NCBI RefSeq assembly: GCF_000756305.1
Contig: NZ_JRFE01000014.1
Span: 215,670-279,669 of the forward strand
Origin: Myxosarcina sp. GI1
Lineage (GTDB): Bacteria > Cyanobacteriota > Cyanobacteriia > Cyanobacteriales > Xenococcaceae
Direction: 5' to 3'
Length of the DNA: 64,000 bases
A program made the translations under genes and the position numbers. The number at the start of each line of letters is the position of its first letter. Positions within the stretch are counted from its first letter, which is position 1. The notes below the pieces were generated by a model. The model worked only from the letters and a program-made list of their open reading frames with translations. It ran no database searches and had not been told where the DNA came from. Below are positions 10,086-42,564 of the stretch, piece after piece.

Positions 10086-11576
10086 ATGACCAGTGCTGCA
10101 CCAGCTAAAACAGAATACGAAGCCGTAATCGGTTTGGAAACTCACTGTCAACTCAACACCGAAACTAAAATCTTCAGTCGCGAATCGACTAAATTCGACC
10201 CCGAAAACCCCAACACTAATATTTCGCCGATTTGTTTGGGCTATCCTGGAGTGCTGCCAGTATTAAACGAAAAAGTTTTAGAATACGCCGTCAAAGCAGG
10301 ATTGGCACTCAACTGTCAGATCGCGCCATACAGTAAATTCGATCGCAAGCAATATTTCTATCCCGACTTGCCTAAAAACTATCAAATCTCGCAATACGAT
10401 TTGCCCATAGCCGAACATGGCTGGATTGAGATCGAACTTGTCGAAAAACCCAACACCGAACCCGTTAAGAAAAAAATCGGCATTACTCGCCTGCACATGG
10501 AAGAAGACGCAGGAAAATTAACTCATGGTGGCAGCGATCGCCTGGACGGTTCTTCTTATTCTCTAGTAGACTTTAATCGTGCTGGCGTACCCTTACTAGA
10601 AATTGTCTCCGAACCCGATTTGCGATCGGGGAAAGAAGCTGCTGAATATGCCCAGGAAATCCGCCGCATTATGCTTTATCTGGGTATTAGCGACGGCAAA
10701 ATGCAGGAAGGATCGCTGAGGTGCGATGTTAATGTTTCGGTGCGTCCTGTAGGTCAACAAGAGTTTGGTACTAAAGTAGAACTGAAAAACATGAACTCCT
10801 TTAGTGCCATTCAAAAAGCGATCGAATATGAGATAGAAAGACAAATTGCCGCAATTGAAAACGGCGAACCAATCTATCAAGAAACTCGCCTATGGGAAGA
10901 AGGATCGGGACGTACTAAAAGTATGCGCTTAAAAGAAGGCAGTAGCGATTATCGTTATTTTCCCGAACCAGATTTGCCACCCATCGAAGTCTCGAAAGAA
11001 CAATTAGAAGCATGGAAGGCAGAATTACCAGAACTGCCCGCACAAAAACGCAACCGTTATGAATCAGAATTAGGCTTATCGGCTTACGATACCAGAGTTT
11101 TAACCGACGATCGCGCCGTTGCCGAGTATTTTGAAGCGGCAGTAACCGCTGGTGGTGATGCCAAACAAGTAGCTAACTGGGTAATGGGAGATATTGCTGC
11201 TTATGTAAACAGCAATAACTTAACTATCTCCGAAACCGCACTCAAACCAGAAACCCTGGCAGAACTAATTGCTCTAGTTGCCGATGGTACAATTAGCGGT
11301 AAAATTGGCAAAGACATTTTACCCGAACTATTAACCAAAGGCGGTTCGGCAAAAAAACTGGTAGAGAAAAAAGGACTAATTCAAATCTCCGATACGGGAG
11401 AACTCGAAACAATTATCGATGAAGTCCTTAACGCACATCCCAAGGAACTAGAACAATTCCGTAATGGCAAAACTAAGCTCAAAGGTTTCTTTGTCGGACA
11501 GGTAATGAAGAAAACTAGCGGACGCGCCGATCCCAAACTGACTAACCAATTACTAGGTAAAAAGCTACAGGCGTAA
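10086..11576 (+). CDS. gatB: Asp/Glu-tRNA(Asn/Gln) amidotransferase subunit B
   Basis: A 496-residue protein. GatB is the kinase/transamidase subunit of GatCAB, which converts Glu-tRNA(Gln) to Gln-tRNA(Gln). Signatures include EAVIGLETHCQLNT at the N-terminus, the FYPDLPKNYQISQYD block, the LLEIVSEPDLRS loop, RCDVNVSVRP and the YRYFPEPDLPP motif, then the C-terminal helical tail domain from about residue 335. Length matches the family (about 480-500). gatA and gatC are not adjacent, which is common in cyanobacteria. Confidence 0.97.
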   Translation: MTSAAPAKTEYEAVIGLETHCQLNTETKIFSRESTKFDPENPNTNISPICLGYPGVLPVLNEKVLEYAVKAGLALNCQIAPYSKFDRKQYFYPDLPKNYQISQYDLPIAEHGWIEIELVEKPNTEPVKKKIGITRLHMEEDAGKLTHGGSDRLDGSSYSLVDFNRAGVPLLEIVSEPDLRSGKEAAEYAQEIRRIMLYLGISDGKMQEGSLRCDVNVSVRPVGQQEFGTKVELKNMNSFSAIQKAIEYEIERQIAAIENGEPIYQETRLWEEGSGRTKSMRLKEGSSDYRYFPEPDLPPIEVSKEQLEAWKAELPELPAQKRNRYESELGLSAYDTRVLTDDRAVAEYFEAAVTAGGDAKQVANWVMGDIAAYVNSNNLTISETALKPETLAELIALVADGTISGKIGKDILPELLTKGGSAKKLVEKKGLIQISDTGELETIIDEVLNAHPKELEQFRNGKTKLKGFFVGQVMKKTSGRADPKLTNQLLGKKLQA

Positions 11577-11818
11577 ATCTCTGACAAATAGATAATTAAT
11601 AATTACCTCTTTCTAATCGATCGTTATCAGTTAGGGAGAGGTAAACATATTTTGTTAGATGATTTTTTGTTTGATGAGCGATCGCAACAGTATTAATAGT
11701 GAAAAATTGAAGAAAAGAGTGATTATAACTATATGTAGAAATTTGGCAAAGCCATCTGACAGATAGCAAACAAAAATATTATAAAAACATAATAGTTTAT
11801 TTTATAAATAAGAATTTT

Positions 11819-12757
11819 TTGTACTTTGCAATCTTGAGAAAATTGAAAGCAACTATATTTAAAACAAAAATTGTTTGGATAACTGGTATATTTGCTATTT
11901 TTGCTATTAACTGTATGGGTTATTTGAGTGCATATTTTTTGACAAACTATCGTCAAACTGATAAACAATTTGGATATCCTCGTCCTGTTAATAAGCAAAC
12001 ACCCAAAGATTTTCAGCTACAATATATTTCCGATCGCCTGAAAACAAATCAACAATAATGGATCGATATCTGGTCGATTGAGTTACCTGAGTCCAACCCA
12101 AAAGGAACAATTATTCTATTTCATGGCAAAGGAAGTACAAAAAGCAGTTTATTAGCATCAGCTAAAGTATTTCATTATCTTGGTTACAAAACTGTTTTGG
12201 TAGATTTTAGAGGTTCTGGAGGCTCTAGCGGTAATGTTAATACCGTAGGCGTATATGAAAGTGAAGATGTAGCTTTAGTTTTTAATCGTATTCGAGAATT
12301 AAATCCTAATAAACCGATAATCTTATATGGTATTTCTATGGGAACTGCTGCTATTTTAAGAGCGATCGCTGAAGAAGATATAAACACCAATGCTATTATT
12401 CTAGAACTTCCTTTTACCAGACTTTTAAGTGCAGTACGAACTAGGTTAAAAAATTCTCAGTTTCCACCTTTTCCTATGGCAGAATTAATAGTTTTCTGGG
12501 GTGGGGTTCGCTACGGTTTTAATGGTTTTGCCCACAATCCAATCGACTATGCTAAAGAAGTTAATTGTCCGACTTTAATTTTACAAGGCAGTAAAGATCC
12601 TACAGTTAGTATCGAAGAAACTGAAGATTTATACTTCAAAATTAACTCTCTAAAAAAAATGGTTATTTTTCCCGAAGCAGGACATCAGTTATTAGTTACC
12701 GTCGATAAAGAAATATGGCAACAAAGTGTAAGAGATTTTTTAGGCAATTTGAATTAG
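11819..12757 (+). pseudogene. Alpha/beta hydrolase interrupted by one in-frame TAA
   Basis: Two pieces lie in the same frame, separated by one TAA at 12056-12058. The first (TTG start at 11819, 79 codons) has a membrane segment and ends DRLKTNQQ. Immediately after the TAA the frame continues WIDIWSIELP, then GTIILFHGKGS (oxyanion loop region), VLVDFRGSGGSSG, the nucleophile elbow LYGISMGTAA (Ser), the acid region LILQGSKDPTV, and the catalytic His in EAGHQLL near the end. Everything a membrane-anchored hydrolase needs is present apart from that one codon. I read it as a recent nonsense mutation. A sequencing error is possible, as is separate translation of the downstream part from TTG at 12197. 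The true start is uncertain, because no ATG or clear ribosome site is in frame. Confidence 0.75.
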
Positions 12758-12894
12758 CGATCGCTAGTAAATAAAAAATAACTTTGAACTAAAGAATGTA
12801 TTAAACACTAGTAGTAACGTCTATTGCTCCGATTTCGATCTCGGCAATTTTATTCGATCGGCAATACCATGAATTATTGCTAATTTTAAAAGCT

Positions 12895-13803
12895 ATGTTA
12901 AATGTTTCTCTTTATAGCAAAATTTTAATGGTTATAGTTGCGGCGATCGCATCTGTTATTGTTGGTTTAAAAATTCAAGACGATCGGCTCGATCGAAACT
13001 ATAGCGTTCGAGTCCCAAAAACAACTCGACCTAGTCCGCAAGTAGAGCAAAAAGCCGAGTCATCTTCTACATCAGAAACCAAAAAGTCTGTAGAATCTTC
13101 TTCTGTATCTGAAGCCAATGCGTCTTCTGCAAATGTAATTACTACCTACAAGACTACAGATGCTTTTAAGCAATACAAACCTAGATATTTTATGACAACT
13201 ATCCACCCTAGCAACTATGGCGATCGCTATAGTACTGACGTTTATGGTAACTCTGTAAACAACTTACCCCTTGTGGTCTTGCATGAAACCACCAACTCTA
13301 TTGCCAGTGCTATTAATACTTTTAAAACACCTCATTCTAGCGACAACAATCAAGTTAGTTATCACACTTTAATTGCTCTAGACGGAACTATTATTTATTT
13401 GCTTACTTCGGATAAACGAGCTTTTGGGGCGGGTAACTCAGTATTTGAAAGTTCTTTAGGCAAGGAAACTGTTAAAACCAATGCTAATTTACCACCGTCG
13501 GTAAACAACTTTGCCTACCATATATCTTTAGAAACGCCGCCAGACAGTTGGGGTAAATCTCGCCAAAACTACCATAGCGGTTACACTGACAATCAATACA
13601 AGTCTTTAGCCTGGTTGCTAGCTCAAAGTAACATACCAGACGAACGCATTACTACACATAAAAATGTAGATCGTTCTGGTCATCGATTCGATCCTAGAAG
13701 CTTTGATTTTAATAAGTTTTTACAAATACTACATACTTATCGTCAACCAATAGATAAAATGTCCGAGCGAGAAACTTCGATTACAGAAATATTAAGAGGT
13801 TAA
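12895..13803 (+). CDS. N-acetylmuramoyl-L-alanine amidase (Amidase_2/PGRP type), exported
   Basis: About 302 residues from the ATG at 12895; an upstream in-frame TTG at 12877 is less likely. Residues 1-25 form a signal anchor (ILMVIVAAIASVIVGL). A Ser/Glu/Lys-rich linker follows to about residue 85. The catalytic domain has LVVLHETTNSIASAI (zinc His), a YHTLIALDG strand, the FAYHISLETP block and THKNVDRSGHRFDP (later metal and catalytic residues). The enzyme would cleave the lactyl-amide bond of peptidoglycan stem peptides in the periplasm. It stands alone between the broken hydrolase and the deaminase. Confidence 0.85.
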   Translation: MLNVSLYSKILMVIVAAIASVIVGLKIQDDRLDRNYSVRVPKTTRPSPQVEQKAESSSTSETKKSVESSSVSEANASSANVITTYKTTDAFKQYKPRYFMTTIHPSNYGDRYSTDVYGNSVNNLPLVVLHETTNSIASAINTFKTPHSSDNNQVSYHTLIALDGTIIYLLTSDKRAFGAGNSVFESSLGKETVKTNANLPPSVNNFAYHISLETPPDSWGKSRQNYHSGYTDNQYKSLAWLLAQSNIPDERITTHKNVDRSGHRFDPRSFDFNKFLQILHTYRQPIDKMSERETSITEILRG

Positions 13804-28679: not shown

Positions 28680-31199
28680 ATGGCAAAACAGCTTAACTTA
28701 TTAGGGACTGGTCAAATTATCCCTACTCCTCTTCATCGCGAAATGGAGAGATCCTATTTAGAATACGCCATGAGCGTTATTGTCGGCAGGGCTTTACCAG
28801 ATGTGAGAGATGGACTAAAACCCGTACATCGTCGAATTTTGTATGCGATGTATGAGTTGGGTCTTACACCCGATCGCCCCTATCGTAAGTGCGCTCGTGT
28901 TGTCGGTGATGTTTTAGGAAAATATCATCCTCATGGAGATCAGTCTGTATATGATGCTTTAGTAAGATTGGTACAGAGCTTTTCTACCCGCTATCCGCTT
29001 CTAGACGGTCACGGTAACTTTGGTTCGGTGGATAACGATCCGCCAGCCGCGATGCGCTACACCGAAACCAGACTAGCTCCTCTGGCATATCAAGGGATGC
29101 TCGATGAGATTAGCGAAGCGACGGTAAATTTTAGCGACAATTTTGATAGTTCTCAGCAAGAACCAGTAGTCTTACCCGCGCAATTGCCGATTTTATTGCT
29201 CAACGGCTGTGCGGGAATTGCTGTGGGGATGGCAACTAATATTCCACCGCATAACTTGACTGAAACCGTTGATGGTTTGATTGCGCTGATTGACAAGCCA
29301 GACCTGGCCGACGAAAAACTATGGCAGATAATTCCCGGTCCCGACTTTCCGACGGGAGGAGAAATTGTCGAAACCAAAGGCATCCATGATGCTTATCTTA
29401 CTGGTAAAGGTATTATCAAAGTTCGAGGTGTTGCTAAAGCCGAAAGACTTTCTAAAGGCAAAACCAGACGTAGAGAAAAAGAGGCAATTGTAGTTACAGA
29501 ACTTCCCTATCAGGTTAATAAAGCTGGCTGGATTGAAAAAGTAGCCGATTTAGTCAATCAGGGACGTATTGAAGGAATTTCCGATATTAGAGACGAAAGC
29601 GATCGCCAGGGCTTGCGAGTTGTTATCGAACTAAAACGCGATGCTAAAGCCAAAAAAGTCTTACAACAGCTTTATCGTCAGACGGCACTGCAATCCAATT
29701 TTGGCGCGATTTTGTTGGCATTGGTGGATAATAAGCCAGTTCAATTGTCATTGCGTCAATTGTTAACTGAGTTTCTCAAGTTTCGCGAACAAACCCTAAC
29801 TCGACAGTACAGCCACGAACTAGCAGAAGCAGAGCGCAGACTACACTTGGTAGAAGGCTTATTAATCGCTTTAAATAATCTCGATCGCGTTATTGAAGTA
29901 TTGCGTAATGCTCCAGATGGTACTACTGCCAAGTATCGCCTGGAAGAGGAATTAGGCATTAGTCCCGACCAGGGAGACTCGATTTTAGCCATGCCCATGC
30001 GTCGCCTGACGGGTTTGGAAAGACAAAAGTTAGAAACCGAAGCTGAAGATTTACGGGAAAAAATTGCTCAGCTAAATAAAGTTTTGAGCGATCGCCACGA
30101 ATTACTTAAGGCATTAAAAAAAGAGTTACGCGCCCTTAAACGTAAGTTTGGTGACGAAAGACGGACGCGAATCATTAGCGTATTGCCTACTGCGGAAAAG
30201 AAAGTAGTTGCAGCTAAATCTACTCCTACAAAAACCGATGATGCGGTTCGGGCTACACCTAACAAGTTGATGATGCTCGATCGCTCTCCAAACGCTAACT
30301 TGCAAATTACTCACGAAGGCTGTATTTATTGGCAAAATCCTTCAGAAGTTGACTCCGCTTCTAATCTAAATATCAAAGCTGGTGCCGATTTTATTGTTGA
30401 CAGAGAACCAATTGGAGATCGCCAATCGACAATTATAGTTACCGATAGTGGTAAAGCCTACCCGATAGCGATTGCCGATATTCCTTCGGCAATCGAAACT
30501 ACTACTCAAACCGCTGTAGGTTTATTATCTTCAGCAGCACAAAGAGATGCTAACAAGACAGTGGCTCAGTTCTTTATGCCTCAAGATACTAGCAATCTCG
30601 ACTTAATCATGTTGACTGAAAAAGGAATTATCAAACGCCTTAAAGCTTCTGAGTTAGAAGCGTTAGGCAATCGCGGTTTGGTTTTAATCAAGCTCAAGGA
30701 ACGCGACAGCCTACAGTATTTTTGCTTTAGCCGTGAAGGTGAAGAAGTGGCGATCGCTACTACTGGAGGACGAATTTTGCGTCTGGCAGTAGACGAAAAT
30801 CAAATTCCAACTATGGGACGTAATGCTCAAGGTAATAAGGTAATGCGTCTGCGGGTTCGAGAACAATTAGCTGGCTGCTGTGCGGTTACGAGCCAAGATA
30901 CCATAGTTTTGATATCCCAATTGGGTTACGTCAAACGCATACCAGTTAAAACTTTAAGACTAGCCAATCGCGGCGATATAGGCACTCAGGGAATTCAGTT
31001 TGCCGACGAACGAGATAACTTGGCAGCAGCAACTGCGATTAAGTCTCTAAATAATTTAGTATTAATTACTAACAAAGATCGCCGTTTGGTGTTGCCTGTC
31101 AGCGAGATTCCTTTACTAGATAAAAATAGTACTGGAGAAAAATTAGTTAAGTTGCAAGCACAAGAAGCCATTATTGCTATCGCTTCTGGTGTTAAATAA
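28680..31199 (+). CDS. gyrA: Type II DNA topoisomerase subunit A (gyrase A, ParC-like form)
   Basis: An 839-residue protein that breaks and rejoins DNA in the A2B2 enzyme. The N-terminal block [30 protein letters not shown] and the quinolone-pocket region [19 protein letters not shown] are clear, and the catalytic tyrosine is Tyr-127 in [11 protein letters not shown] coiled coil spans about residues 370-490, followed by beta-pinwheel blades from about residue 535. I do not see the canonical gyrase box QRRGGRG in the C-terminal domain, so this could be the second, ParC-like paralogue that many cyanobacteria carry; the name gyrA is provisional. Partner gyrB is not in the window. Confidence 0.85.
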
Positions 31200-31299
31200 C
31201 TATTAGCGCGATCGCGTCCTTCCTTTAGACCTTATCGCGCTATTATCTCTGCTTTTAGCTCAAATTAGAAAAAAATGTTATTGTTAGTAATAAATACAG

Positions 31300-31372
31300 G
31301 GGCGCGTGGCTCAGGGGATAGAGCAACAGATTCCGGTTCTGTAGGTCGCAGGTTCGAATCCTGCCGCGCTCG
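31300..31372 (+). tRNA. tRNA-Arg, anticodon CCG
   Basis: A full cloverleaf can be folded. The acceptor GGGCGCG pairs with CGCGCTC (one G-T), the D stem is GCTC/GAGC, and the anticodon stem ACAGA/TCTGT holds the loop TTCCGGT. The T stem is GCAGG/CCTGC with loop TTCGAAT. The anticodon at 31333-31335 is CCG, reading CGG. The discriminator base is G and no CCA is encoded. It sits 100 bases after the topoisomerase gene. A transposon-end-like array starts 10 bases downstream, so this gene may have been a target site. Confidence 0.95.
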
Positions 31373-31381
31373 TGAGGTTAA

Positions 31382-31510
31382 TGTCTTACAGAGTAACTGT
31401 TTGTCAATTGCCACATATTATTTGTCACCGTTGTCAAATTAGCGTCATCACGCCAATAGACTCAAATAAGACGAGCGTAAATCTTTTGTATAATTTGTCG
31501 ATATAATATT
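31382..31510 (+). mobile_element. Tn7-like/CAST (type V-K) left-end-like repeat array, probably a relic
   Basis: Starting with TGT at 31382, just past tRNA-Arg, the sequence carries ordered sites ending in GTC at 31405, 31426 and 31446. These are 21 and 20 bases apart, two helical turns. The sites read ACTGTTTGTC, ATATTATTTGTC and CAAATTAGCGTC, and a further TATAATTTGTC ends at 31499. From memory, the left end of the Scytonema type V-K element begins TGT, has its first GTC ending at base 23 and repeats at 20-base spacing with near-identical words (AAATTATCTGTC, AGATTAATGTC). Those elements insert downstream of tRNA genes with the left end nearest the target. No transposase, Cas12k or right end is visible in the window, so this is a candidate relic. 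Confidence 0.5.
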
Positions 31511-31617
31511 GCCGAACTAATCAGTTTGGTCTTATCATAATAAAAACTAAACTAAACCGTTTAGTCATGAACAAATTAAAATAGCTACCCAATGACTCTC
31601 AGAAGCAATCCTCTCTA

Positions 31618-32022
31618 TCATAGTTGACTGTAGCAAGTGTACTTTTCTGTATTTTCCTTTAACCAATTACATAACATCTCTTCTGATGTTGTTCCGCTAG
31701 CAATACCTATCATTATGTTTACTACCTCTACTTCTGAAGCTATCATCTTAATTTGGTTAATTTCCAAAAAAACCGCCATAACAATAAAAGCAGTACGTTT
31801 ATTGCCATCAACAAAAGGGTGGTTAATGGCAATACCATAACCTAATGCAGCAGCTAAATCGTATATACTGGCATCGGGATTGTAGTTAGCTATATTTACA
31901 GGACGATATAAAGCACTCTCAAGCTTTCCTTCATTAATAATTCCTGTTGTTCCACCAAATAAAGCAAGCTGTTGTTTGTGTATGGCTTTAGCTTGAGCAA
32001 GAGTAACAAATTTTAAGTTCAT
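31618..32022 (-). CDS. doc: Doc-type (Fic fold) toxin of a toxin-antitoxin pair
   Basis: A 134-residue protein with the Fic/Doc core NHPFVDGNKRTAFI (His-68 to Arg-76) and the entry VTLAQAKAIHKQQLALFGG typical of death-on-curing toxins. In the family, Doc phosphorylates elongation factor Tu and stops translation. Its start overlaps the end of the AbrB-type antitoxin gene by four bases, so the two are co-translated, antitoxin first. The core has Phe-Val-Asp where prophage P1 Doc has Phe-Asn-Asp. Functional assignment rests on family and context. Confidence 0.88.
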   Translation of the reverse strand: MNLKFVTLAQAKAIHKQQLALFGGTTGIINEGKLESALYRPVNIANYNPDASIYDLAAALGYGIAINHPFVDGNKRTAFIVMAVFLEINQIKMIASEVEVVNIMIGIASGTTSEEMLCNWLKENTEKYTCYSQL

Positions 32023-32240
32023 TTAGCCAATTCTTTCATGGCATTACGATAGCGATTAGTAATATTTTTTGCCGTCTCCATTACCGTCTTAAATTCTGGA
32101 TCGTAAGGAGTTAAATATATACCATCAGGTGTTTGAGTGACGTACAAACTATCCCCTTCTCCTACATTCATTTTCTCTAAGATTTCTTGGGGAATACTCG
32201 CACCCAAAGAGTTGCCGATTTTCTGAATTTTTAATTTCAC
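32019..32240 (-). CDS. AbrB/MazE-type antitoxin
   Basis: A 73-residue protein whose N-terminal half is a SpoVT-AbrB swapped-hairpin DNA-binding domain: LKIQKIGNSLGASIPQEILEKMNVGEGDSLYV. The C-terminal part (about residues 45-73, EFKTVMETAKNITNRYRNAMKELA) is the segment that would wrap and neutralise the toxin. It lies directly upstream of doc with a four-base overlap. It probably represses its own promoter. AbrB-Doc pairings are known, though Phd-Doc is the textbook one. Confidence 0.88.
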   Translation of the reverse strand: MKLKIQKIGNSLGASIPQEILEKMNVGEGDSLYVTQTPDGIYLTPYDPEFKTVMETAKNITNRYRNAMKELAK

Positions 32241-32330
32241 AACTTTAATACTGTAGATACGAATGTAGTTACCACTTTAGCAAAAACATATACCCAAACA
32301 TGACCAAAAAGCAAACAAAATGTTGCTAAT

Positions 32331-32966
32331 CTACTTTGCCTGTTCGGTAGCAAGCTTAATTCCCATGCCAATAAAAATCACTCCTGTTACTCGTTTGGCA
32401 AAGTCCATAAACCGAGTTTTAGAACGAACAATACTAGAAGCTTTAGCTGCTAACAAAGCAACAAACATACTCCATGTAGTGCTAGTAGTAATAAACATAC
32501 ACCCCAGAAAGAAAAATGAAAACGCTTTATGGCTATTAGCTGGATCGACAAACTGAGGTAACAATGCCAGAAAAAATAAAGCTACCTTGGGATTAAAAAC
32601 ATTAGTCAAAATTCCCTGGCGGTAAATAGTCGATAAATTTGCCTCTTTTGTCTTAGTAATGTCGGTGGTTTCCTGGGAACTATTATTAAAGAACATTTGG
32701 ATACCCAAATATACCAAATATGTAGCACCAATCAATTTCACGATATTAAATGCAATTACCGAGGTAGCCAAAATAGCGGATAGTCCAAATGTAGCGGCAC
32801 TGGTATGTAATAACAAACCAGTACTAATGCCCAAAACTGAAGCAACACCAGCTTTTCGTCCCTGACCTATGCTACGAGTAATGATATATATAGTATCCGA
32901 ACCAGGTAATAAGCTAAGAGAAATTGCTGCCAACAAAAAAACAGAGAGGTCTTGAGTACCAAACAT
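32331..32966 (-). CDS. LysE/RhtB-family amino-acid exporter
   Basis: A 211-residue inner-membrane protein with six hydrophobic segments. The family start DLSVFLLAAISLSLLPGSDTIYIITRSIGQGRKAGVASVLGIS is clear, including the PG-x-D motif, and NVFNPKVALFFLALLPQFV is the second signature. These proteins export amino acids such as threonine, homoserine or lysine; the substrate here is unknown. It lies upstream of the antitoxin gene on the same strand but 90 bases away, so operon membership is unlikely. Confidence 0.9.
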   Translation of the reverse strand: MFGTQDLSVFLLAAISLSLLPGSDTIYIITRSIGQGRKAGVASVLGISTGLLLHTSAATFGLSAILATSVIAFNIVKLIGATYLVYLGIQMFFNNSSQETTDITKTKEANLSTIYRQGILTNVFNPKVALFFLALLPQFVDPANSHKAFSFFFLGCMFITTSTTWSMFVALLAAKASSIVRSKTRFMDFAKRVTGVIFIGMGIKLATEQAK

Positions 32967-33064
32967 AAGTTAGATATTTGAGAAAAATTATTTAAATAAA
33001 TTGAGAGTATTTAGGATGTTAACACTTTATTCTCGTCATCAAAACCATTCAAATCATTAGTTCG

Positions 33065-33108
33065 ACAATGACTTTACTAACTTTAGTTAGTGGCTTGCGA
33101 TCGCTACC
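33065..33108 (+). pseudogene. Relic of a second DevA-type ATPase gene (Walker A-adjacent piece)
   Basis: The plus strand reads TMTLLTLVSGLRSL at 33065-33106, matching TTLLTLVSGLRSP just after the Walker A of the intact devA downstream. At the DNA level 33071-33105 matches 33965-33999 at 30 of 35 positions, and all five differences are transitions. No other ABC motif is readable on either side. It is a short leftover of a duplicated or displaced devA. Confidence 0.65.
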
Positions 33109-33144
33109 CAAAAAAAATCAGATATCTAAGATAATAATTGTTTC

Positions 33145-33774
33145 TTAGTTATTCAATATATCGGGAGTAAAACCAATGCCTTTTTTAACTAATTCTTTAG
33201 CTAGTTCATAATTCCATTGAGACTCAATTTTGAGATTATCATTTTCATGATAAAAATCATATATAACTCTGTTACCAAAAGCTCTAATTAGTTCTACCAA
33301 GCTATCCGAACCACCAAAAGGATGACCCATAGGCTCATAATATAAACAACCTCGATTGTTTTCTTCTCGATTGTTTTCTTGTCGAACAAGCTTGATTAAA
33401 CAATACTCCCCACAAAAAATAGAATGAAGCATTGATTCTAAATCCCAGTTACCAGGAGTTCTTAAAAATGGATGTAAACGATGTTCGTAATGAGTTAGAT
33501 TACAAAGTTTCTGATACACTATACCTTCCTCACTGTCGTAATCAAAAGTATCTTCAAACCATGCTTTCGCTTCATTATCAAGATAACTATACCAATTAAA
33601 ATCTTCGATTGGATCTTGATAATCTAAATTGCTTTCTTCTTTTTCAGAATCACAAATATTCATCCAATCATTTTTGATTATTTTGAGCTTCTCAAACATT
33701 TTTTGGAAATACTCAAATCTATCTAAACTAAGGATTTCAAATTCAATATAAAAGTATCTATCTTTCAAATTCAT
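33145..33774 (-). CDS. Hypothetical acidic protein, 209 residues
   Basis: I do not recognise this protein. From the preferred ATG at 33774 (MNLKDRYFYIEFEIL) it is soluble and strongly acidic, rich in Tyr, Trp, Glu and Asp, with DSEKEESNLDYQDPIEDFNWYS and AWFEDTFDYDSEEG. The C-terminal half has GHPFGGSDSLVELIRAFG. The upstream extension to 33843 would overlap the divergent devA start, so I reject it. Small acidic proteins of this look are often immunity or antitoxin-like, but nothing here proves that. It sits between a devA relic and the intact devA, so it may have arrived with a rearrangement. Confidence 0.6.
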   Translation of the reverse strand: MNLKDRYFYIEFEILSLDRFEYFQKMFEKLKIIKNDWMNICDSEKEESNLDYQDPIEDFNWYSYLDNEAKAWFEDTFDYDSEEGIVYQKLCNLTHYEHRLHPFLRTPGNWDLESMLHSIFCGEYCLIKLVRQENNREENNRGCLYYEPMGHPFGGSDSLVELIRAFGNRVIYDFYHENDNLKIESQWNYELAKELVKKGIGFTPDILNN

Positions 33775-33802
33775 GTCATCAATACTCCATTGGTAAATAT
33801 TT

Positions 33803-34519
33803 ATGAACGAACAACAATCAATACAACCAGTAATCGACATCAAAAACCTCGACCACTATTTTGGTACGGGACAACTTCGCAAACAGGTTTTATTCGATAT
33901 TAATTTAGAAATCGATCGCGGCGAAATTGTCTTAATGACAGGTCCTTCTGGTTCGGGTAAAACTACTTTATTAACCTTAGTTAGTGGTCTGCGATCGCCT
34001 CAGTCGGGAAGCTGTAAAATACTTGGGTCAGAGCTTTGTGGTGCGAGTAATAAAGAGTTAGTTCGAGCTAGACGCAATAACGGCTATATCTTTCAAGCAC
34101 ATAACTTACATAAAAGCCTTACTGCCTTACAAAACGTGCGGATGGGTTTGGAAGTACATGGCAAATACTCTCAGGCAGAAATGCGCGATCGCGCCGCAGC
34201 AATGCTAGAACAGGTAGGCTTAGGAGATAAATTGGATTATTATCCCGACAACTTATCTGGTGGACAAAAACAACGTGTGGCGATCGCTCGTGCTTTGGTG
34301 GCACATCCTGCGATTGTCTTAGCCGACGAACCAACAGCCGCTTTAGACAGTAAATCTGGTCGCGACGTAGTAAATTTGATGCAAAAGTTAGCTAAAGAAC
34401 AAGGCAGCACAATTTTACTCGTCACTCACGACAACCGTATTTTAGACGTTGCCGATCGCATCATACATATGGAAGACGGCAAGTTAGTTAATAACTCTAC
34501 TAAAAAAGCTGCTGCTTGA
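33803..34519 (+). CDS. devA: DevA-family ABC exporter ATP-binding protein
   Basis: A 238-residue ATPase with Walker A GPSGSGKTT, Q-loop FQAHNL, signature LSGGQKQRVAIARAL, Walker B IVLADEPTAALD and the VTHD switch. LDHYFGTGQLRKQVLFDINLEI at the start is characteristic of DevA, which in heterocyst-forming relatives works with DevB and DevC to export glycolipids or other compounds through TolC. No devB or devC gene is next to it here, so its partners must be elsewhere or lost. A short fragment of a second copy lies upstream at 33065. Confidence 0.88.
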   Translation: MNEQQSIQPVIDIKNLDHYFGTGQLRKQVLFDINLEIDRGEIVLMTGPSGSGKTTLLTLVSGLRSPQSGSCKILGSELCGASNKELVRARRNNGYIFQAHNLHKSLTALQNVRMGLEVHGKYSQAEMRDRAAAMLEQVGLGDKLDYYPDNLSGGQKQRVAIARALVAHPAIVLADEPTAALDSKSGRDVVNLMQKLAKEQGSTILLVTHDNRILDVADRIIHMEDGKLVNNSTKKAAA

Positions 34520-34583
34520 AAATACTTTGCCTCGATTGGCTCTACAGCGAAGTTATAATGTATTTTTAAACCATACGTTTACT

Positions 34584-35984
34584 ATGCCTTTAAATCCTCG
34601 CTTACTTAAAGGGCGTTATGAAATCCAGAGGCATTTAGGTCAAACCGACCGTCAAACTTTATTAGCCAAGGATCGACAAACTCAAGAGTTAGTGGTAGTT
34701 AAGCTGCTAACCTTTGGTGGTAAATTAAAGTGGGAGACATTTAAGCTTTTTGAGCGTGAAGCTAAAATTCTCAAAGAACTCAAACATCCAGCTATTCCTC
34801 GTTATCTCGATTATTTTGATGTAGAAACAGATTTTGGACGAGGTTTTGCATTGGTACAAAGCTATATCGATGCACCTTCTCTAGCAGCGCATATTCAAGC
34901 AGGAAGAACCTTTAGTGAAATAGAACTAAAACAAATTGTCACAGCAGTTTTAGAAATTCTGATTTATCTGCATCATCGCCATCCCCCAATTATCCATCGC
35001 GATCTCAAACCAGAAAATATATTACTGGGCGATCGCTCTGGAAATTATGTCGGACAAGTTTATTTAGTAGACTTTGGTTCGGTACAGGCTGCTACCAAGG
35101 AACTAGGAACGAGAACGGTAGTAGGAACTTACGGTTATATGCCATTAGAACAGTTTGGGGGAAGAGCGGTACCAGCTTCCGATCTCTATGGTTTGGGAAC
35201 GACAATTATTTATTTAGCTTCGGGACAGCATCCAGCCGATTTACCTCAACAAGACTTTCGGATTAGCTTTGAAAACTTTGTCAATCTCTCGTCTAGCTTT
35301 GTTGAGTGGTTGCAGTGGATGACACAACCAAGTTTAGAACGGCGTTTGGAATCTGCCGATCGCGCTTTAGAAGCCTTAGAAAATCCCAAGCTACAGACAA
35401 AGCCTGCTTTAGTTGTTTCCAAACCAATAGATTCTAAAGTGGTTTTGAATAAAAAAGCAGAATATCTAGAAATTTGTATTCCGCCAGTTGGTTTTAGTAT
35501 GCAATTGCTGTTTATGATTGGATTTGCAACCTTTTGGAACGGATTTTTGGTGGTTTGGTATTCTATTGCCATCGCCACCTGGAGTCAAGGAGGTTGGTTT
35601 GCAGCTTTGTTTGCACTCGGTCATTTGGGTGTTGGTGTCTGGTTAATTTTATCTATACTATTTACTCTTTTTGGAAATACTCTGTTGTATATCGACAACA
35701 AACAAATTTCCCTCAGATATCAGCTTTTTGGTCTTAAATATTATCGTCCTCGTCCTATGTCCAGGCATAAAATCGTTAAGCTAGAACGCACTAATACTTC
35801 TTACAAGAAAGATTCCGATGGCGATCGCGTAGAAGTAAAACCACGAATTAATATTTGGGCTGGAACTAAAAAGTTTAAAATTGGGGGAAACGGTATACTT
35901 TCTGAAATTGAACTTGACTGGATATCTCACGAACTCGGTGATTGGCTGAAGTTGCCAGTTGTATCAATGAACAATGAACAGTAA
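34584..35984 (+). CDS. Membrane-linked Ser/Thr protein kinase
   Basis: About 466 residues from the ATG at 34584 (MPLNPRLLKGRYEI); a TTG 19 codons earlier lies only 5 bases past devA and is less likely. The kinase domain covers about residues 11-260. It has Lys in VVVKLL, HRDLKPENILL (catalytic loop), VDFGSVQAA (DFG) and YMPLEQFGGRAVPASDLYGLG. The glycine loop is degenerate (HLGQTDRQTLLA), as in several cyanobacterial kinases. Two membrane segments at about residues 315-375 and a C-terminal domain follow. It lies directly after devA, possibly co-transcribed. Target unknown. Confidence 0.85.
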   Translation: MPLNPRLLKGRYEIQRHLGQTDRQTLLAKDRQTQELVVVKLLTFGGKLKWETFKLFEREAKILKELKHPAIPRYLDYFDVETDFGRGFALVQSYIDAPSLAAHIQAGRTFSEIELKQIVTAVLEILIYLHHRHPPIIHRDLKPENILLGDRSGNYVGQVYLVDFGSVQAATKELGTRTVVGTYGYMPLEQFGGRAVPASDLYGLGTTIIYLASGQHPADLPQQDFRISFENFVNLSSSFVEWLQWMTQPSLERRLESADRALEALENPKLQTKPALVVSKPIDSKVVLNKKAEYLEICIPPVGFSMQLLFMIGFATFWNGFLVVWYSIAIATWSQGGWFAALFALGHLGVGVWLILSILFTLFGNTLLYIDNKQISLRYQLFGLKYYRPRPMSRHKIVKLERTNTSYKKDSDGDRVEVKPRINIWAGTKKFKIGGNGILSEIELDWISHELGDWLKLPVVSMNNEQ

Positions 35985-36098
35985 ACAATGAACAATTTTC
36001 ACTGACCACTGATATCTGTCCATTGCTCATTGATAAATGCTAAATGTTAAATGATAATTGCTCATTATCGAAAGGTTGGGCATTTAACTGTTAACTTC

Positions 36099-36206
36099 TT
36101 GGCGAGCGTTCCAGGGCGCAACTGCGCCGACTCGTTTTATTTGTTTTATAAAAAACGTCTCGCTCCTAGCGGAGCCTCGCGGGATACCCGCGCCAGTTCT
36201 CGCCGC
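36099..36206. repeat. Palindromic mini-element, long form
   Basis: A compact GC-rich island in AT-rich DNA. Outer arms are GGCGAG (36101-36106) and CTCGCC (36199-36204). Inside are perfect hairpins GGCGCA/TGCGCC (36115-36128), GCTCC/GGAGC (36162-36175) and CGCGGG/CCCGCG (36178-36192). Its ends, CTTGGCGAGCGTTCC and CTCGCCGCTTTT, match those of the shorter copy at 55668-55715. It is preceded from about 35970 by degenerate short repeats (AATGAACA words) and followed by TTTTGACT repeats. Confidence 0.6.
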
Positions 36207-36231
36207 TTTTGACTTTTGACTTTCGTTATAC

Positions 36232-37191
36232 CTACTCATATTTCACTCGCGGATCGAGAACGGCGTATAAAAGATCGGCAATTAAATTAAATAACACAAT
36301 CAAAATACCGTAAATAAAAGTAATTGCCATTACTACTGGCGTATCGCTACGGTAGATCGACTCAATTAACAATGCACCAATTCCTGGGACTCGAAAAATT
36401 TGTTCGGTTACTAATGCACCAGTAAAAATTGCAGGTATATCTATAGCAATTAAAGTAACGACAGGAATCATTGCGTTACGTAAAATATGATTTTTAATAA
36501 TTGCCCATTGAGTTAAACCTTTAGCCATAGCCGTTCGCACGTATTCTTGATTTAATTCTTCTAAAACCGAAGAACGAATAAACCTCATTAAAATTGCCGA
36601 CTGATATAAAGCGAGTACCGCAATTGGCATAATAGATTGTTTTATTTGACCGATAAAGCTATTAAAATCCGTTACTTGCAAACTGCTATTGTAAATAAAC
36701 GGAAACCAGTTTAACCAAACGCTAAAAATAATTATAAATAGTAAACCTGTAAAAAACGGTGGAATAGAAAAGCCTAAAAAAGCAATAGTAGTAATAATTT
36801 GGTCGGTAACAGAATAACGTCTGAGAGCGGAAATAATTCCCAACGGAAAAGCAATTAATACGCCAAAAATATAAGCCAAACCAACTACCCAAAGCGTAGC
36901 TGGCAACCGCTGCCTTAATAGATTGAATACGGGACTGCGACTATTGAAAGAATAACCCATATCGCCGCGAACAAATGCTGTAAACCACTTTATATAGCGA
37001 ATATGAATCGGCTGGTCTAATCCCAAAGAACGGCGAATATTTTCTCTGACTTCGGTGGTAATTGCAGGATTAGACGCAAATTCACCTAAAGGATCTCCTG
37101 GTGCTAGTGCCAAAATAGCAAAAATAATTATACTAATTGCTATCAAAGTAGGAATTGAAATTAGCAAACGTTTAATAAAGTAGTGGCTCAT
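36232..37191 (-). CDS. OppB/DppB-type ABC transporter permease
   Basis: A 319-residue inner-membrane protein with six segments. The family start YFIKRLLISIPTLIAISIIIFAILALAPGDP, the N-terminal loop SLGLDQPIHIRYIKW and the EAA loop EYVRTAMAKGLTQWAIIKNHILRNA are diagnostic of oligopeptide/dipeptide/nickel permeases. It needs an OppC partner, two ATPases and a binding protein. None is adjacent; an OppC-type gene lies about 13 kb away at 50294. Scattered subunits are frequent in cyanobacteria. Confidence 0.9.
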   Translation of the reverse strand: MSHYFIKRLLISIPTLIAISIIIFAILALAPGDPLGEFASNPAITTEVRENIRRSLGLDQPIHIRYIKWFTAFVRGDMGYSFNSRSPVFNLLRQRLPATLWVVGLAYIFGVLIAFPLGIISALRRYSVTDQIITTIAFLGFSIPPFFTGLLFIIIFSVWLNWFPFIYNSSLQVTDFNSFIGQIKQSIMPIAVLALYQSAILMRFIRSSVLEELNQEYVRTAMAKGLTQWAIIKNHILRNAMIPVVTLIAIDIPAIFTGALVTEQIFRVPGIGALLIESIYRSDTPVVMAITFIYGILIVLFNLIADLLYAVLDPRVKYE

Positions 37192-37203
37192 TAAATTTAG
37201 TTT

Positions 37204-37305
37204 TTAGAAGCTCTTCTCAAAATAATGTACTTCAGGAAGATCTTCACGTTGCCCCAGATCGACCCATCCGTGTTTGAGAAAAAATCTCATTGCAGCTATA
37301 TTCAG
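37204..37305 (-). pseudogene. GNAT acetyltransferase C-terminal remnant
   Basis: The reverse strand ends with a frame reading FTLNIAAMRFFLKHGWVDL, then GQREDLPEVHYFEKSF and TAA at 37204-37206. The N-x-A-A-x-x-F-x-x-x-H-G-W pattern is the acetyl-CoA-binding end of GNAT enzymes. No N-terminal part is found upstream in any frame. It is the first of three gene remnants in the 37.2-37.9 kb gap. Confidence 0.6.
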
Positions 37306-37430
37306 TGTGAAGCTACTGCGATCGCCACATCTGTTAATCCTAGCCTGTTAAATTCTGGTTCGGATACTAAGACAGCAGAACTATAAAAAGATATTACAAA
37401 ATAAAATCAATCGAATTTATCATGCTCTTA

Positions 37431-37676
37431 TTATCTTGCGAGATTGGTATAGGCTCTGTCAACCAATGTAGGAAGACAATTGCTGACATTTAGCTTTGCT
37501 GCTAACTTAACATCCCGCTTAAAACCTCGCTCGATTAATTCTTTGCCAGAGCCACATTGCTTAATTAAATATTCTAGGCTGTGTTGAAGGTTTTGATATA
37601 CCGTGACTGCGGCTTGCGCCTCTGGTGACAAACTACCGCCAAGATAATTTATAACTGCACCTGCTCCAATCCAGTC
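37431..37676 (-). pseudogene. comB: ComB (2-phosphosulfolactate phosphatase) C-terminal remnant
   Basis: The reverse strand reads about 80 codons: KDWIGAGAVINYLGGSLSPE, then AQAAVTVYQNLQHSLEYL, CGSGKELIERGFKRDVKLA and AKLNVSNCLPTLVD before the stop at 37431. GAGAVI, SPEAQAA, SGKELIERGF-DV and the AAKLNVS end are the C-terminal third of ComB-family proteins. The rest (about 160 residues) is absent, replaced upstream by a GNAT fragment in a different frame. A short TTG-started frame could be predicted here, but it cannot make a working enzyme. Confidence 0.7.
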
Positions 37677-37822
37677 TTTAAAATAAACAGTTCTAAATCA
37701 TGATACTTTCCCTTCCAAAAACCAGGTTTTATAAGTATTCCCGGACTCTGGAAACCTAATTTTTCCGATAGCTTTTTAGATGCCACATTTTCTAACATGA
37801 CTTCTGCAATAACATATTTTAC
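37676..37822 (-). pseudogene. Second GNAT acetyltransferase C-terminal remnant
   Basis: The reverse strand reads VKYVIAEVMLENVASKKLSEKLGF, then QSPGILIKPGFWKGKYHDLELF. The EN-x-ASKKLSEKLGF block is the GNAT coenzyme A site, and W-KGKYHDLELF is the usual last strand. A stop lies just upstream of the fragment, so no N-terminus remains. It abuts the ComB remnant at about 37676 in another frame, marking a deletion junction. Confidence 0.6.
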
Positions 37823-37915
37823 TCCTCACAAATAAAATATAGATTTATGCGATCGACTTAGTTATTAATTTAAAATCTAACCATTACGCAGACAAATATT
37901 AGACAAGAAATATAC

Positions 37916-39676
37916 ATGACTGAAGCTACAGCTATTCGTCAGCCCAAACCAACAGCTACAACTATCGCTTATCAGGTGGCAATGCCACAACCAGCTTCTC
38001 ATTTATTTGAAGTGAGTTTGCAGGTTAACAACTGGCAAGAAAACCAGCTAGATTTAAAAATGCCCGTTTGGACTCCTGGCTCTTATTTAGTCAGAGAATA
38101 CGCGAGGCACGTTCAAGATTTTGTGGCTGAAGATAGCAATGGCAATTTAGCTAGCAAAAAAGTCAGCAAAAATCGCTGGCGCATAGAGACAGAAAATAGT
38201 TCTGAGATTACGGTACGCTATCGAGTTTACGCTAACGAACTAACGGTACGTACCAATCATTTAGATAGCACTCATGGCTATTTCAACGGCGCGGCTTTGT
38301 TCTTTTTCATTTCAGGTTGGGAACGACAGCCGATCCGTGTCCAGATTATTCCTCCGTATTCTAATTGGCAAGTCAGCACCACCTTATCTGTAGTCGATCG
38401 CAAAGCTAATATTTACGAAGCACAAGATTTCGATACTTTGGTAGACAGTCCCGTAGAAATCGGTACGCAAGAAGTATACGATTTTGAAGCTGTCAACAAA
38501 CCCCATCAACTAGCAGTTTGGGGCAAAGGAAACGCCAAACCACAAAAGATTATTGAAGATACACAAAAGATAATCGAAACCGAAGCTAAAATCTTTGACG
38601 GGGTACCTTACGATCGCTATTTATTTTTACTACATCTTTCTGGTAGTGGTTACGGTGGTTTGGAACACAAAGAGTCTTGTACTTTAAATTATCCCCGCTT
38701 TGGCTTTCGCGATTGCAACAAGTACAATCGTTTTATGCAGCTTGTAGCACATGAATTTTTTCATCTGTGGAACGTGAAAAGGATTCGCCCCCACGTTTTA
38801 GAAAAGTTTAATTACGAAGCGGAAAGCTACACTACTTCTTTGTGGTTTTGCGAGGGAACAACCAGCTACTACGATATTTTAATTCCCCTGCAAGCAGGAG
38901 TTTACGAGCGTAAAACCTGTTTGGAAAATCTTAGTAAAGACATTACCCGCTATCTCACCATACCAGGGCGCAACGTTCAACCATTAGGAGAATCTAGCTA
39001 TGATGCCTGGATCAAACTCTATCGCCGCGATGCCAATAGCGATAACAATCAGATTTCTTATTATCTCAAAGGAGAAATGGTATCGTTACTGCTAGATCTT
39101 TTAATTAGAGCCAAACATAATAACCAGCGATCGCTAGATGATGTGATGCGTTTGATGTGGCAGCGGTTTGGCAAACAAGAGATTGGCTTTAGCGAATCAC
39201 AATTACGTAATGCGATCGCTGAAGTAGCCGATGATAATTTAGATGACTTTTTCGTTCGCTATATCGAAACTACAGAAGAATTGCCGTTTGACGAATATTT
39301 AGAACCCTTTGGCTTGTACGTTAAAGCCGTTGAAGACGATGACCCCGTTTTCCATACGGGTATGAAAGTAGTTACCGAAAATGGCAGAGAAATAATTAAG
39401 TTTGTTGAAGCTGATTCTCCTGCCGCCAAAGCAGGAATAGATGCTGAAGATGAGCTCCTGGCAATTGACGATATTCGCATTACCTCAGAATTTTTGAGCG
39501 ATCGCCTCAAAGACTATCAGGCAGAAGATACAATTCAGGTTACGGTATTTCATCAAGACCAATTAAAAACTTTACCCGTAACTCTTGCCAAACCGCTACC
39601 AACTCGCTATGAACTCGCTCGTTTGGATAACCTTTCCGACTTGCAGCAGCAAAATTTATCTGGATGGCTGGGTTAA
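37916..39676 (+). CDS. M61-family metallopeptidase with PDZ domain (glycyl aminopeptidase-like)
   Basis: A 586-residue protein. Residues about 15-190 are the beta-rich N-terminal domain (LKMPVWTPGSYLVREYARHV). The zinc site is VAHEFFHLWNVKRIRP (His-279, Glu-280, His-283), with the third ligand Glu in the downstream WFCEGTTSYYD block. A PDZ domain covers about residues 480-570 (VEADSPAAKAGIDAEDELLAID). No signal peptide is evident, so it may be cytoplasmic. The family releases N-terminal Gly or Ala in vitro; the physiological substrate is unclear. It lies 30 bases upstream of the aminotransferase gene, likely on the same transcript. Confidence 0.9.
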   Translation: MTEATAIRQPKPTATTIAYQVAMPQPASHLFEVSLQVNNWQENQLDLKMPVWTPGSYLVREYARHVQDFVAEDSNGNLASKKVSKNRWRIETENSSEITVRYRVYANELTVRTNHLDSTHGYFNGAALFFFISGWERQPIRVQIIPPYSNWQVSTTLSVVDRKANIYEAQDFDTLVDSPVEIGTQEVYDFEAVNKPHQLAVWGKGNAKPQKIIEDTQKIIETEAKIFDGVPYDRYLFLLHLSGSGYGGLEHKESCTLNYPRFGFRDCNKYNRFMQLVAHEFFHLWNVKRIRPHVLEKFNYEAESYTTSLWFCEGTTSYYDILIPLQAGVYERKTCLENLSKDITRYLTIPGRNVQPLGESSYDAWIKLYRRDANSDNNQISYYLKGEMVSLLLDLLIRAKHNNQRSLDDVMRLMWQRFGKQEIGFSESQLRNAIAEVADDNLDDFFVRYIETTEELPFDEYLEPFGLYVKAVEDDDPVFHTGMKVVTENGREIIKFVEADSPAAKAGIDAEDELLAIDDIRITSEFLSDRLKDYQAEDTIQVTVFHQDQLKTLPVTLAKPLPTRYELARLDNLSDLQQQNLSGWLG

Positions 39677-41175: not shown

Positions 41176-42564
41176 ATGCAGAATATGACCGACAATATAG
41201 CAACCGAAATACAGAGTGCGATCGCCTCCCGCCGTCACGATGTCGATTATTTAGAAATTAGAGTCGAACAAAGTGAAGCTACCGCTCTATCTTTTAGAGG
41301 CAAACAGTTAGATGGGGTCGATCGTAGCTTTGCTCTAGCAGGAGGCATTCGCGCCTGTCATAAAGGAGGCTGGAGTTTTGTAACTTTCAACGGTTTAGAA
41401 GAATTGTCGGCACGAGTCGATGAAGCGATTTCTCAAGCTAAAATAGTCGGCTCGGAAACGACTCAACTAGCACCGATAGAACCAATAGAAGATTATGTCC
41501 CCGCTCAAATTAAAAGAGATCCTCGCGGTATTGATTTGCAAGAAAAACGTCGTTTATTAGAAATTTACAATCAGCTTATTTTAGACTACGATCCGCGCAT
41601 TCAAACTACCATGACTAGCTTGAGCGATCGCTTTACTACCAAATATTTTGTCAATTCAATTGGTAGCTGTATCGTTCAAGAAAGACTAAATATTTCTGGA
41701 CGTTTTGGGGCAATTGCCAGAGGAGAAGCAGGCTTAGTCCGTCAGGGGTTTGAATCGGTTTTTTCTCTCAACGACTTTAACGATTTGGTGGGAATTGAGG
41801 AGCGGGTTTTAAGCGCGGCGCAACGGGCAATTAGACAATTAGAAGCAAAATCTGTCAAAGGAGGACAGTATACCGTACTGCTCGATCCCTATCTAGCTGG
41901 TGTGTTTATCCACGAAGCTTTTGGGCATCTTTCGGAAGCCGATTTCGTCTATGAAAATCCGCAGATGCAAGAACTATTAACTTTAGGCAAGCCGATGGGA
42001 ATCAAACAACTAAACGTTATTGACGATGCGACCTTAGAAAACCTGCCTGGAACTTTAAAATATGACGATGAAGGAGTGCCAGGACAGCGTAAGTATTTAA
42101 TTAAAGATGGCGTATTAACTCAAAGACTGCATTCTAGAGAAACTGCAGGCAAAATGCAGGAATCACCGACGGGAAACGCCAGAGCAATTCGCGCCAGCTA
42201 TCCTCCCATAGTGCGAATGACTAATACGGCGATCGAGCCTGGAGAAACTCCCCTGGCAGAAATGATTAAAACTATTGACGATGGCGTATATGCGGTCAGA
42301 ATGCTAGGAGGACAAACCAATGGCGAAATGTTTACCTTTGCTGCCGCAGAAGGATATAGAATCCGCAATGGGAAAATAGCCGAGCCAGTTAGCGATGTAA
42401 CTCTGACGGGAAATGTATTTCAAACTCTCAAGGATATAGAAGCAATTAGCAATGATACTCTCTACACCAATGGTGGATGTGGCAAAGGAGGGCAAATGCC
42501 TTTACCAGTTAGCGTTGGCGGTCCTCATGTAAAAATAAATAATGTAGTCGTGGGTGGCAGGTAA
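41176..42564 (+). CDS. tldD: TldD-family metalloprotease (first copy)
   Basis: A 462-residue protein. The zinc motif is HEAFGHLSEAD (His-246, HExxxH). SLSDRFTTKYFVNSIGSCI and MLGGQTNGEMFTFAAAEGYRI are typical TldD blocks, and the C-terminal GGCGKGGQMPLPVSVGGP is a shared signature. In enterobacteria TldD pairs with inactive TldE (PmbA) to cleave peptides. Here the second copy at 44467 also keeps HExxxH, so this is not an obvious TldD-TldE pair. An alternative start lies three codons in. Confidence 0.9.
   Translation: MQNMTDNIATEIQSAIASRRHDVDYLEIRVEQSEATALSFRGKQLDGVDRSFALAGGIRACHKGGWSFVTFNGLEELSARVDEAISQAKIVGSETTQLAPIEPIEDYVPAQIKRDPRGIDLQEKRRLLEIYNQLILDYDPRIQTTMTSLSDRFTTKYFVNSIGSCIVQERLNISGRFGAIARGEAGLVRQGFESVFSLNDFNDLVGIEERVLSAAQRAIRQLEAKSVKGGQYTVLLDPYLAGVFIHEAFGHLSEADFVYENPQMQELLTLGKPMGIKQLNVIDDATLENLPGTLKYDDEGVPGQRKYLIKDGVLTQRLHSRETAGKMQESPTGNARAIRASYPPIVRMTNTAIEPGETPLAEMIKTIDDGVYAVRMLGGQTNGEMFTFAAAEGYRIRNGKIAEPVSDVTLTGNVFQTLKDIEAISNDTLYTNGGCGKGGQMPLPVSVGGPHVKINNVVVGGR

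What the first reader, a model, noticed from the sequence alone, without database searches (positions are those of the whole stretch)
31382..31510. CAST/Tn7-like left-end array directly after tRNA-Arg(CCG), with no transposase nearby
Seen: a TGT start 10 bases past the tRNA and T/A-rich sites ending in GTC at 31405, 31426 and 31446 (spacing 21 and 20), plus a fourth TTTGTC word ending at 31499. Known: type V-K elements such as the Scytonema one have TGT ends, a first GTC near base 23 and the same 20-base repeat spacing, and they insert left end first just past tRNA genes guided by a spacer matching the tRNA. Inference: this is a relic or solo end of such an element; the 31.6-38 kb disorder (AbrB-Doc pair, unknown protein, devA relic, three gene remnants) could be its cargo or scar.
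Basis: partly seen in the sequence, partly recalled or inferred. Interest (0 to 1): 0.7.

Follow-up and report, generated by a model that had tools for sequence, protein, structure and literature searches.

The report
Fossil left end of CRISPR transposon
About 30 bases past an arginine tRNA gene lie some 45 bases that match the left end of a Cas12k-encoding (CRISPR-guided) transposon, most likely all that is left of one such element after deletion; the same genome carries such elements or their likely remnants at four other tRNA genes and one likely tRNA fragment.

Summary
The array is a real transposon end. A profile of nine other ends, made without the window, finds 31402-31446 with E = 1.1e-11; next best in the window is E = 0.14. 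Its best match in the genome is the left end of a 27.5-kb element with cas12k, tnsC and tniQ at tRNA-Asn. The true tip is TGTCAATTGCC at 31402, not the TGT at 31382. A PAM-like GGTT in the tRNA lies 63 nt away. The window shows no cas12k or tns genes, no credible right end and, in 31403-38000, no homing spacer. From about 31505 the DNA matches the operator of a dev transporter locus of relatives, so it is likely chromosome, not cargo. Relatives do not carry the array as an ordinary tRNA flank; two have an end of another type after the same tRNA. In a survey, 8 of 23 judgeable tRNA-adjacent ends are likewise solo. Most likely it is a deletion relic of a type V-K CAST: a new member of a known kind. 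Solo ends as kept 'occupied' marks are not excluded, but the one test made gave no support.

The parts
31300..31372 (+). tRNA-Arg(CCG), intact: likely the attachment gene of the lost element
   Evidence: ARAGORN, Rfam RF00005 64.4 bits
31335..31338 (+). GGTT, PAM-like word 63 nt before the tip (inferred PAM; a weak test, since GT words are common)
   Evidence: published range 46-82 nt with one exception of 147 (PMC9938897, passages)
31339..31355 (+). predicted 17-nt protospacer of the lost homing guide (inferred)
   Evidence: by analogy with the homing spacers found at other tRNA genes
31397..31401 (+). CTGTT, the five bases outside the tip; would be the target-site duplication, second copy not found
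   Evidence: sequence; no right end found
31402..31426 (+). transposon tip and first TnsB-type repeat, with a 2-nt insertion
31427..31446 (+). second TnsB-type repeat
31447..31466 (+). place of the third repeat, decayed or replaced (50% identity to the consensus)
31505..31568 (+). operator/promoter segment of a dev transporter locus; limit of the element's remains
   Evidence: matches in L234, L235, L236, L237, L238 (75-82%), and 28 nt only in L239

Best explanation
The array at 31402-31446 matches the left end of a Cas12k transposon and is most likely the last remnant of a type V-K CAST that inserted past tRNA-Arg(CCG) and was later deleted. Likely course: a short homing guide would have paired with the tRNA next to the GGTT at 31335-31338; TnsB would have joined the left end about 63 nt downstream; later a deletion that spared the tRNA removed guide, tracrRNA, cas12k, cargo, tns genes and right end and left the stump beside a chromosomal dev locus. 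Shown: the end, its place and orientation, the parts not found in the window, and the dev segment from 31505. Inferred: the guide, the PAM, the deletion and its course. The stump cannot move by itself; at most it could be bound by TnsB made elsewhere in the genome (untested).
For: 88% over 49 bp to the left end of the cas12k element at tRNA-Asn in the same genome, E = 2.2e-9; leave-one-out profile E = 1.1e-11. Tip, repeat spacing and orientation as in other ends. 25 of 33 ends examined have a same-strand tRNA ending 0-60 bp upstream, the window included. GGTT 63 nt from the tip; in the 13 surveyed elements with a homing spacer that distance is 47-64 nt. The resident Cas12k and TnsC are relatives of ShCas12k and ShTnsC. 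Not an ordinary flank: best matches of relatives end at query 52-92 (tRNA end = 83) except G008 (118) and G026, whose only match is to the array.
Against: No homing spacer (best 4 mismatches in 31403-38000, none after TGAAAG), no right end or duplication in the window, no cas or tns gene in the window. No empty site could be read, because none of the 60 genomes searched is of the same genus and downstream genes differ. No donor element with a guide for this tRNA was found.
Confidence: 0.9

Rival explanations
1. The end belonged to a Tn7-like element of another kind that a TnsD/TniQ protein sends to tRNA genes (such as type I-B2 or I-D CASTs), not to a Cas12k element.
For: Such elements also use tRNA sites (PMC11406308, passages). 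The window's homing spacer is missing, so the guide itself is not shown. Some solo ends of the survey lie in genomes without a cas12k match (G012, G087, G088, G098).
Against: The closest end in the genome belongs to a cas12k element with a homing spacer. I compared no end of a I-B2 or I-D element.
Confidence: 0.06
2. The 31.6-38 kb stretch is cargo of the element, so the relic is several kilobases long.
For: An AbrB-Doc pair lies 0.2 kb inside the end, and Fic/Doc is listed as cargo in 7 Tn7-like transposons (PMC8649781, passages).
Against: The operator segment at 31505, the unknown protein and DevA recur together or in pairs in relatives on contigs without an end-model match. No right end in the window.
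Confidence: 0.04
3. Chance A/T-rich words, or an ordinary flank of tRNA-Arg.
For: The repeats are short and A/T-rich.
Against: Profile E = 1.1e-11, E = 2.2e-9 to the resident element's end, no conservation past the tRNA in relatives.
Confidence: 0.01

Closest known systems
Type V-K CAST (Cas12k Tn7-like transposons such as ShCAST)
   Same: TGT tip, TnsB-type repeats at the known spacing, left end towards a tRNA, GTN word at a fitting distance
   Different: Only the outer two repeats remain; no cas12k, tns genes, tracrRNA or right end found in the window, and no homing spacer found in 31403-38000
The 27.5-kb element at tRNA-Asn of the same genome (C14:510427-537888)
   Same: Closest end found: 88% over 49 bp
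   Different: It still has both ends, homing spacer, tnsC, tniQ and a cas12k split over two frames
Degenerated V-K CASTs of cyanobacteria (twelve degenerated Cas12k set aside in PMC9938897, passages)
   Same: Decayed element
   Different: Those were found through cas12k; here nothing but an end is left

Membership tests
Type V-K CAST, as an element | Left end with TGT tip and spaced TnsB-type repeats | tested here: met
   third repeat decayed
Type V-K CAST, as an element | Left end downstream of a tRNA gene directed towards it | tested here: met
   tRNA ends 30 bp upstream
Type V-K CAST, as an element | GTN PAM 46-82 nt from the left end | tested here: inconclusive
   GGTT at 63 nt and three other GTN words at 47-58 nt; common by chance and without a guide to confirm it
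Type V-K CAST, as an element | Truncated repeat plus about 17-nt spacer matching the tRNA | tested here: not met
   none in 31403-38000; positive controls at Asn, Ser, Ala and Phe found theirs
Type V-K CAST, as an element | cas12k, tnsB, tnsC, tniQ | tested here: not met
   no tblastn match in the window
Type V-K CAST, as an element | Right end and target-site duplication | tested here: not met
   the window holds 32.6 kb inside the tip, and a more distant or decayed right end would be missed
Solo end (relic) of a V-K CAST | End homologous to that of a cas12k element, rest absent, not conserved as a tRNA flank | tested here: met
Solo end (relic) of a V-K CAST | Binding by a V-K TnsB | not testable with these tools
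   needs a binding assay

The most novel reading that the evidence does not exclude
Solo V-K left ends past tRNA genes are not debris but kept 'occupied' marks: TnsB from other CASTs in the cell binds the stump and repels new RNA-guided insertions, so a genome collects immunised tRNA sites.
Probability: 0.05. Interest if true: 0.75.

Novelty: new member of a known kind. Interest (0 to 1): 0.36.

Why it matters
About 45 bp of an end are enough to recognise a past CAST visit where no CAST gene is left. In this genome the count of tRNA sites with a V-K element or remnant rises to six (Arg, Asn, Ser, Ala, Phe and a likely Pro fragment). In the survey 8 of 23 judgeable tRNA-adjacent ends were solo. 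A census by cas12k alone would miss them. Ends of two types after tRNA-Arg(CCG) in three same-family genomes suggest repeated use of one site. If the stumps repel new insertions, that would be directly testable.

Tried and rejected
TGT at 31382 as the tip: rejected, the other ends align from 31402. Right end: blastn with two right ends and a tip pattern gave nothing credible in the window. The best blastn hit has E = 0.04 and lies at 6 kb, upstream of the tRNA. The pattern with up to 3 mismatches has 23 matches against 7.8 expected from shuffles; the only one inside the end with 2 mismatches on the expected strand, 41706-41719, sits in a GGCAATTGCC palindrome. Homing spacer in 31403-38000: three stretches with 4 mismatches, none after TGAAAG. 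Spacer against tRNA-Arg in the own-genome pieces L006, L007, L008, L009, L014 and L016: within 2 mismatches only the tRNA-Asn gene itself and the tRNA fragment. Donor by pattern in genome contigs: 109 stretches, of which 80 were listed, nearly all of these from other phyla; no cas12k or tns match in any of the 109, and the one listed cyanobacterial stretch (L134) is an ordinary repeat array. Empty site: five relatives keep gyrA beside tRNA-Arg, but none shares the window's downstream genes by position. Extra conservation of the outer repeats in solo ends: not found; 9 solo against 15 other ends, p = 0.47 for the outer-inner difference, 0.63 outer, 0.16 inner.

Limits of the survey: the model was built from ten ends that include the window's, and over 40 genomes it ran with stricter filters. 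I examined 29 loci of relatives (one for each of 29 of the genomes with a match) and 4 of the own genome, not all listed matches. 8 of the 33 have no tRNA at 0-60 bp. 'Solo' means no homing spacer within 700 bp and no cas12k match within 15 kb. Coordinates were typed into; not every row was typed, and rereading shows that the rows left out change no class. Weak cas12k copies and assembly gaps can be missed, and ends without cas12k may be of other Tn7-like kinds. One search counts L064 among the solo ends and the three with a homing spacer but no cas12k (L065, L096, L102) among the others. The tnsB label rests on position, on my reading of the translations and on an 82% match beside tnsC in L048; Pfam gave no family for that piece. 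DevB, DevC, TetR, tracrRNA and cargo labels are by eye, not from a call.

Full report
OBSERVATION. All listed words are present past an intact tRNA-Arg(CCG) at 31300-31372. A search of the own genome (7.07 Mb, 76 contigs) with 31290-31620 gives, beside itself, three matches to the array, the best 88% over 49 bp with E = 2.2e-9, and one match to a tRNA region. The three lie beside tRNA-Asn, tRNA-Ser(TGA) and a tRNA-like 3' piece that ARAGORN does not call. A profile made from nine ends without the window hits 31402-31446 with E = 1.1e-11.

THE TIP. Aligned with other ends, the window's end starts at 31402 with TGTCAATTGCC and has a 2-nt insertion in its first repeat. In the outer 43 columns 95% agree with the consensus, in the next 20 columns 50%, so the third repeat is decayed or replaced. 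Three TnsB sites are expected on the ShCAST left end (PMC9527255, passages).

RELATED ELEMENTS IN THE SAME GENOME. C14:510427-537888 is a 27.5-kb element at tRNA-Asn, 263-291 kb from the window's end. It has a left end, a homing spacer (16 of 17, after GTT), cas12k in two frames, a restriction-modification cluster (by eye), tniQ and tnsC (Pfam TniQ and TniB), tnsB-like pieces in two frames, and a right end with the same 14-base tip; outside the tips stand AGAAC and AGGAC. Its TnsC is a relative of ShTnsC (E = 1.5e-116). C24 has a 615-aa Cas12k (ShCas12k relative, E = 8.6e-236) with an end at tRNA-Ala(GGC), a 16-of-17 homing spacer and a second tnsC 29 kb from that end. C4 has a C-terminal piece of cas12k at tRNA-Phe with a 17-of-17 homing spacer. 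C12 has an end and a 14-of-17 homing spacer at tRNA-Ser(TGA), and no cas12k match on that contig. C10 has an end past the tRNA-like piece; its last 17 bases equal the protospacer of a tRNA-Pro(GGG) element in relative G004 (L121), so it is likely a tRNA-Pro fragment. With the window that makes six sites. The end model, which was built with four of these ends in it, finds those four at 53.6-71.5 bits; next come the tRNA-Ala end (18 bits), a weak site on C50 and the right end of the tRNA-Asn element.

WHAT IS MISSING. The window has no match to cas12k, tnsB-like, tnsC or tniQ and no credible right end. No homing spacer was found in 31403-38000, and 30900-38500 has no Rfam match but the tRNA at E up to 1.

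WHAT LIES INSIDE. The next recognisable sequence is 31505-31568, with a CTAAACTAAACCGTTTAGT-like word. It stands before devB-like genes in L235, L236 and L238, before devA in L234, and beside a relative (55.7%) of the window's unknown protein 33145-33843 in L237; L239 shares only 28 nt. DevA at 33803-34519 is 85.5% identical to that of L234. None of these five contigs has an end-model match at E <= 1e-4. So the stretch to 34.5 kb is most likely a chromosomal dev locus that also holds AbrB-Doc and LysE genes (Pfam), and the remains of the element are at most about 31402-31504.

RELATIVES. 55 of 60 genomes (own included, none other of the same genus) have a match to 31290-31620. The best matches of relatives end at query 52-92, the tRNA ending at 83, except G008 (to 118) and G026, whose only match is to the array. 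Among 29 tRNA-Arg loci printed, two same-family genomes, G018 and G024, have an end of another type 10 and 15 bp after tRNA-Arg(CCG), 90% identical to the end at tRNA-Phe of the own genome. Neither genome has a cas12k match at E <= 1e-10. No homing spacer was found there, but only 0.6 kb of contig lies inside the end in G018, and 3 kb were scanned in G024. G008 (L033) has a TGTACATTAA word at that place that I did not resolve. Five relatives keep gyrA beside tRNA-Arg; none has an end-model match on that contig.

SURVEY. The end model matches in 38 of 100 genomes and cas12k in 34 of 100, own included. Of 33 end loci examined, 25 have a same-strand tRNA ending 0-60 bp upstream; 13 of the 25 have a homing spacer after TGAAA(G) with 0-4 mismatches. 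Ten of the 25 have neither a homing spacer nor cas12k within 15 kb; two of these have less than 1.2 kb of contig inside the end, which leaves 8 of 23 as solo. The window is one of the 8. Three more (L065, L096, L102) keep a homing spacer but show no cas12k within 15 kb. Solo ends do not differ measurably from the others in how conservation is spread, which gives no support to selection for the outer repeats.

MECHANISM. V-K CASTs are placed by a truncated repeat with a 17-nt spacer matching the tRNA, with a GTN PAM 46-82 nt from the left end and one exception of 147 (PMC9938897, passages). Here GGTT at 31335-31338 ends 63 nt before the tip; in the 13 surveyed elements with a homing spacer the distance is 47-64 nt. 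V-K elements lack TnsA and form cointegrates, and how their hosts resolve these is unknown (PMC11406308, passages). Loss by recombination or deletion would fit but was not observed. [quoted passage not shown]

NOVELTY. V-K att sites at diverse tRNA genes that differ between close relatives (PMC11406308, section 3.4.2) and degenerated Cas12k genes (PMC9938897, passages) are in print. In the listings and the passages I saw no account of solo V-K ends. Most subscription papers and preprints are not held, and Saito 2021 could not be read, so this is no claim of priority.

Noticed in passing
L014:10415-14300 (G000:C24): In the element at tRNA-Ala a group II intron (Rfam RF00029 at 10846-10923, reverse transcriptase ORF at 10920-12626) lies between the homing spacer and the CRISPR array.
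   Followed up: no
L007:53-1110 and 10956-12911 (G000:C14): The element at tRNA-Asn has tnsB-like and cas12k reading frames each split over two frames, and two tracrRNA-like copies (by eye) between cas12k and the left end.
   Followed up: partly
L006:8478-18001 (G000:C14): Between the two ends of the tRNA-Asn element lie genes that read by eye as a lone Cas1, a WYL-type regulator, SbcC/SbcD and a HerA-NurA pair: likely defence cargo.
   Followed up: no
L003:1430-1501 (G000:C10): A left end stands past a 3' piece of a tRNA, likely tRNA-Pro, with no whole tRNA called there.
   Followed up: partly
L048:5830-5930 (G003:C15): What reads as the right end of one element (tnsC, tniQ nearby) is followed after 5 bases by the left end of another, as if one site had been used twice.
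   Followed up: no
L053:8751 and L054:3295 (G018, G024): Ends of another type directly after tRNA-Arg(CCG) in two same-family genomes without a cas12k match.
   Followed up: partly
L051:9873-10182 (G051:C12): After tRNA-Pro(CGG) a left end is followed about 50 bp inside by a stretch similar to the MerR-type gene next to cas12k of C24 (39.8%), with no cas12k match on that contig: likely another relic.
   Followed up: no
window 31505-34519: A dev locus with its operator and DevA but without devB-like or devC-like genes; AbrB-Doc, LysE and an unknown protein stand in between.
   Followed up: partly
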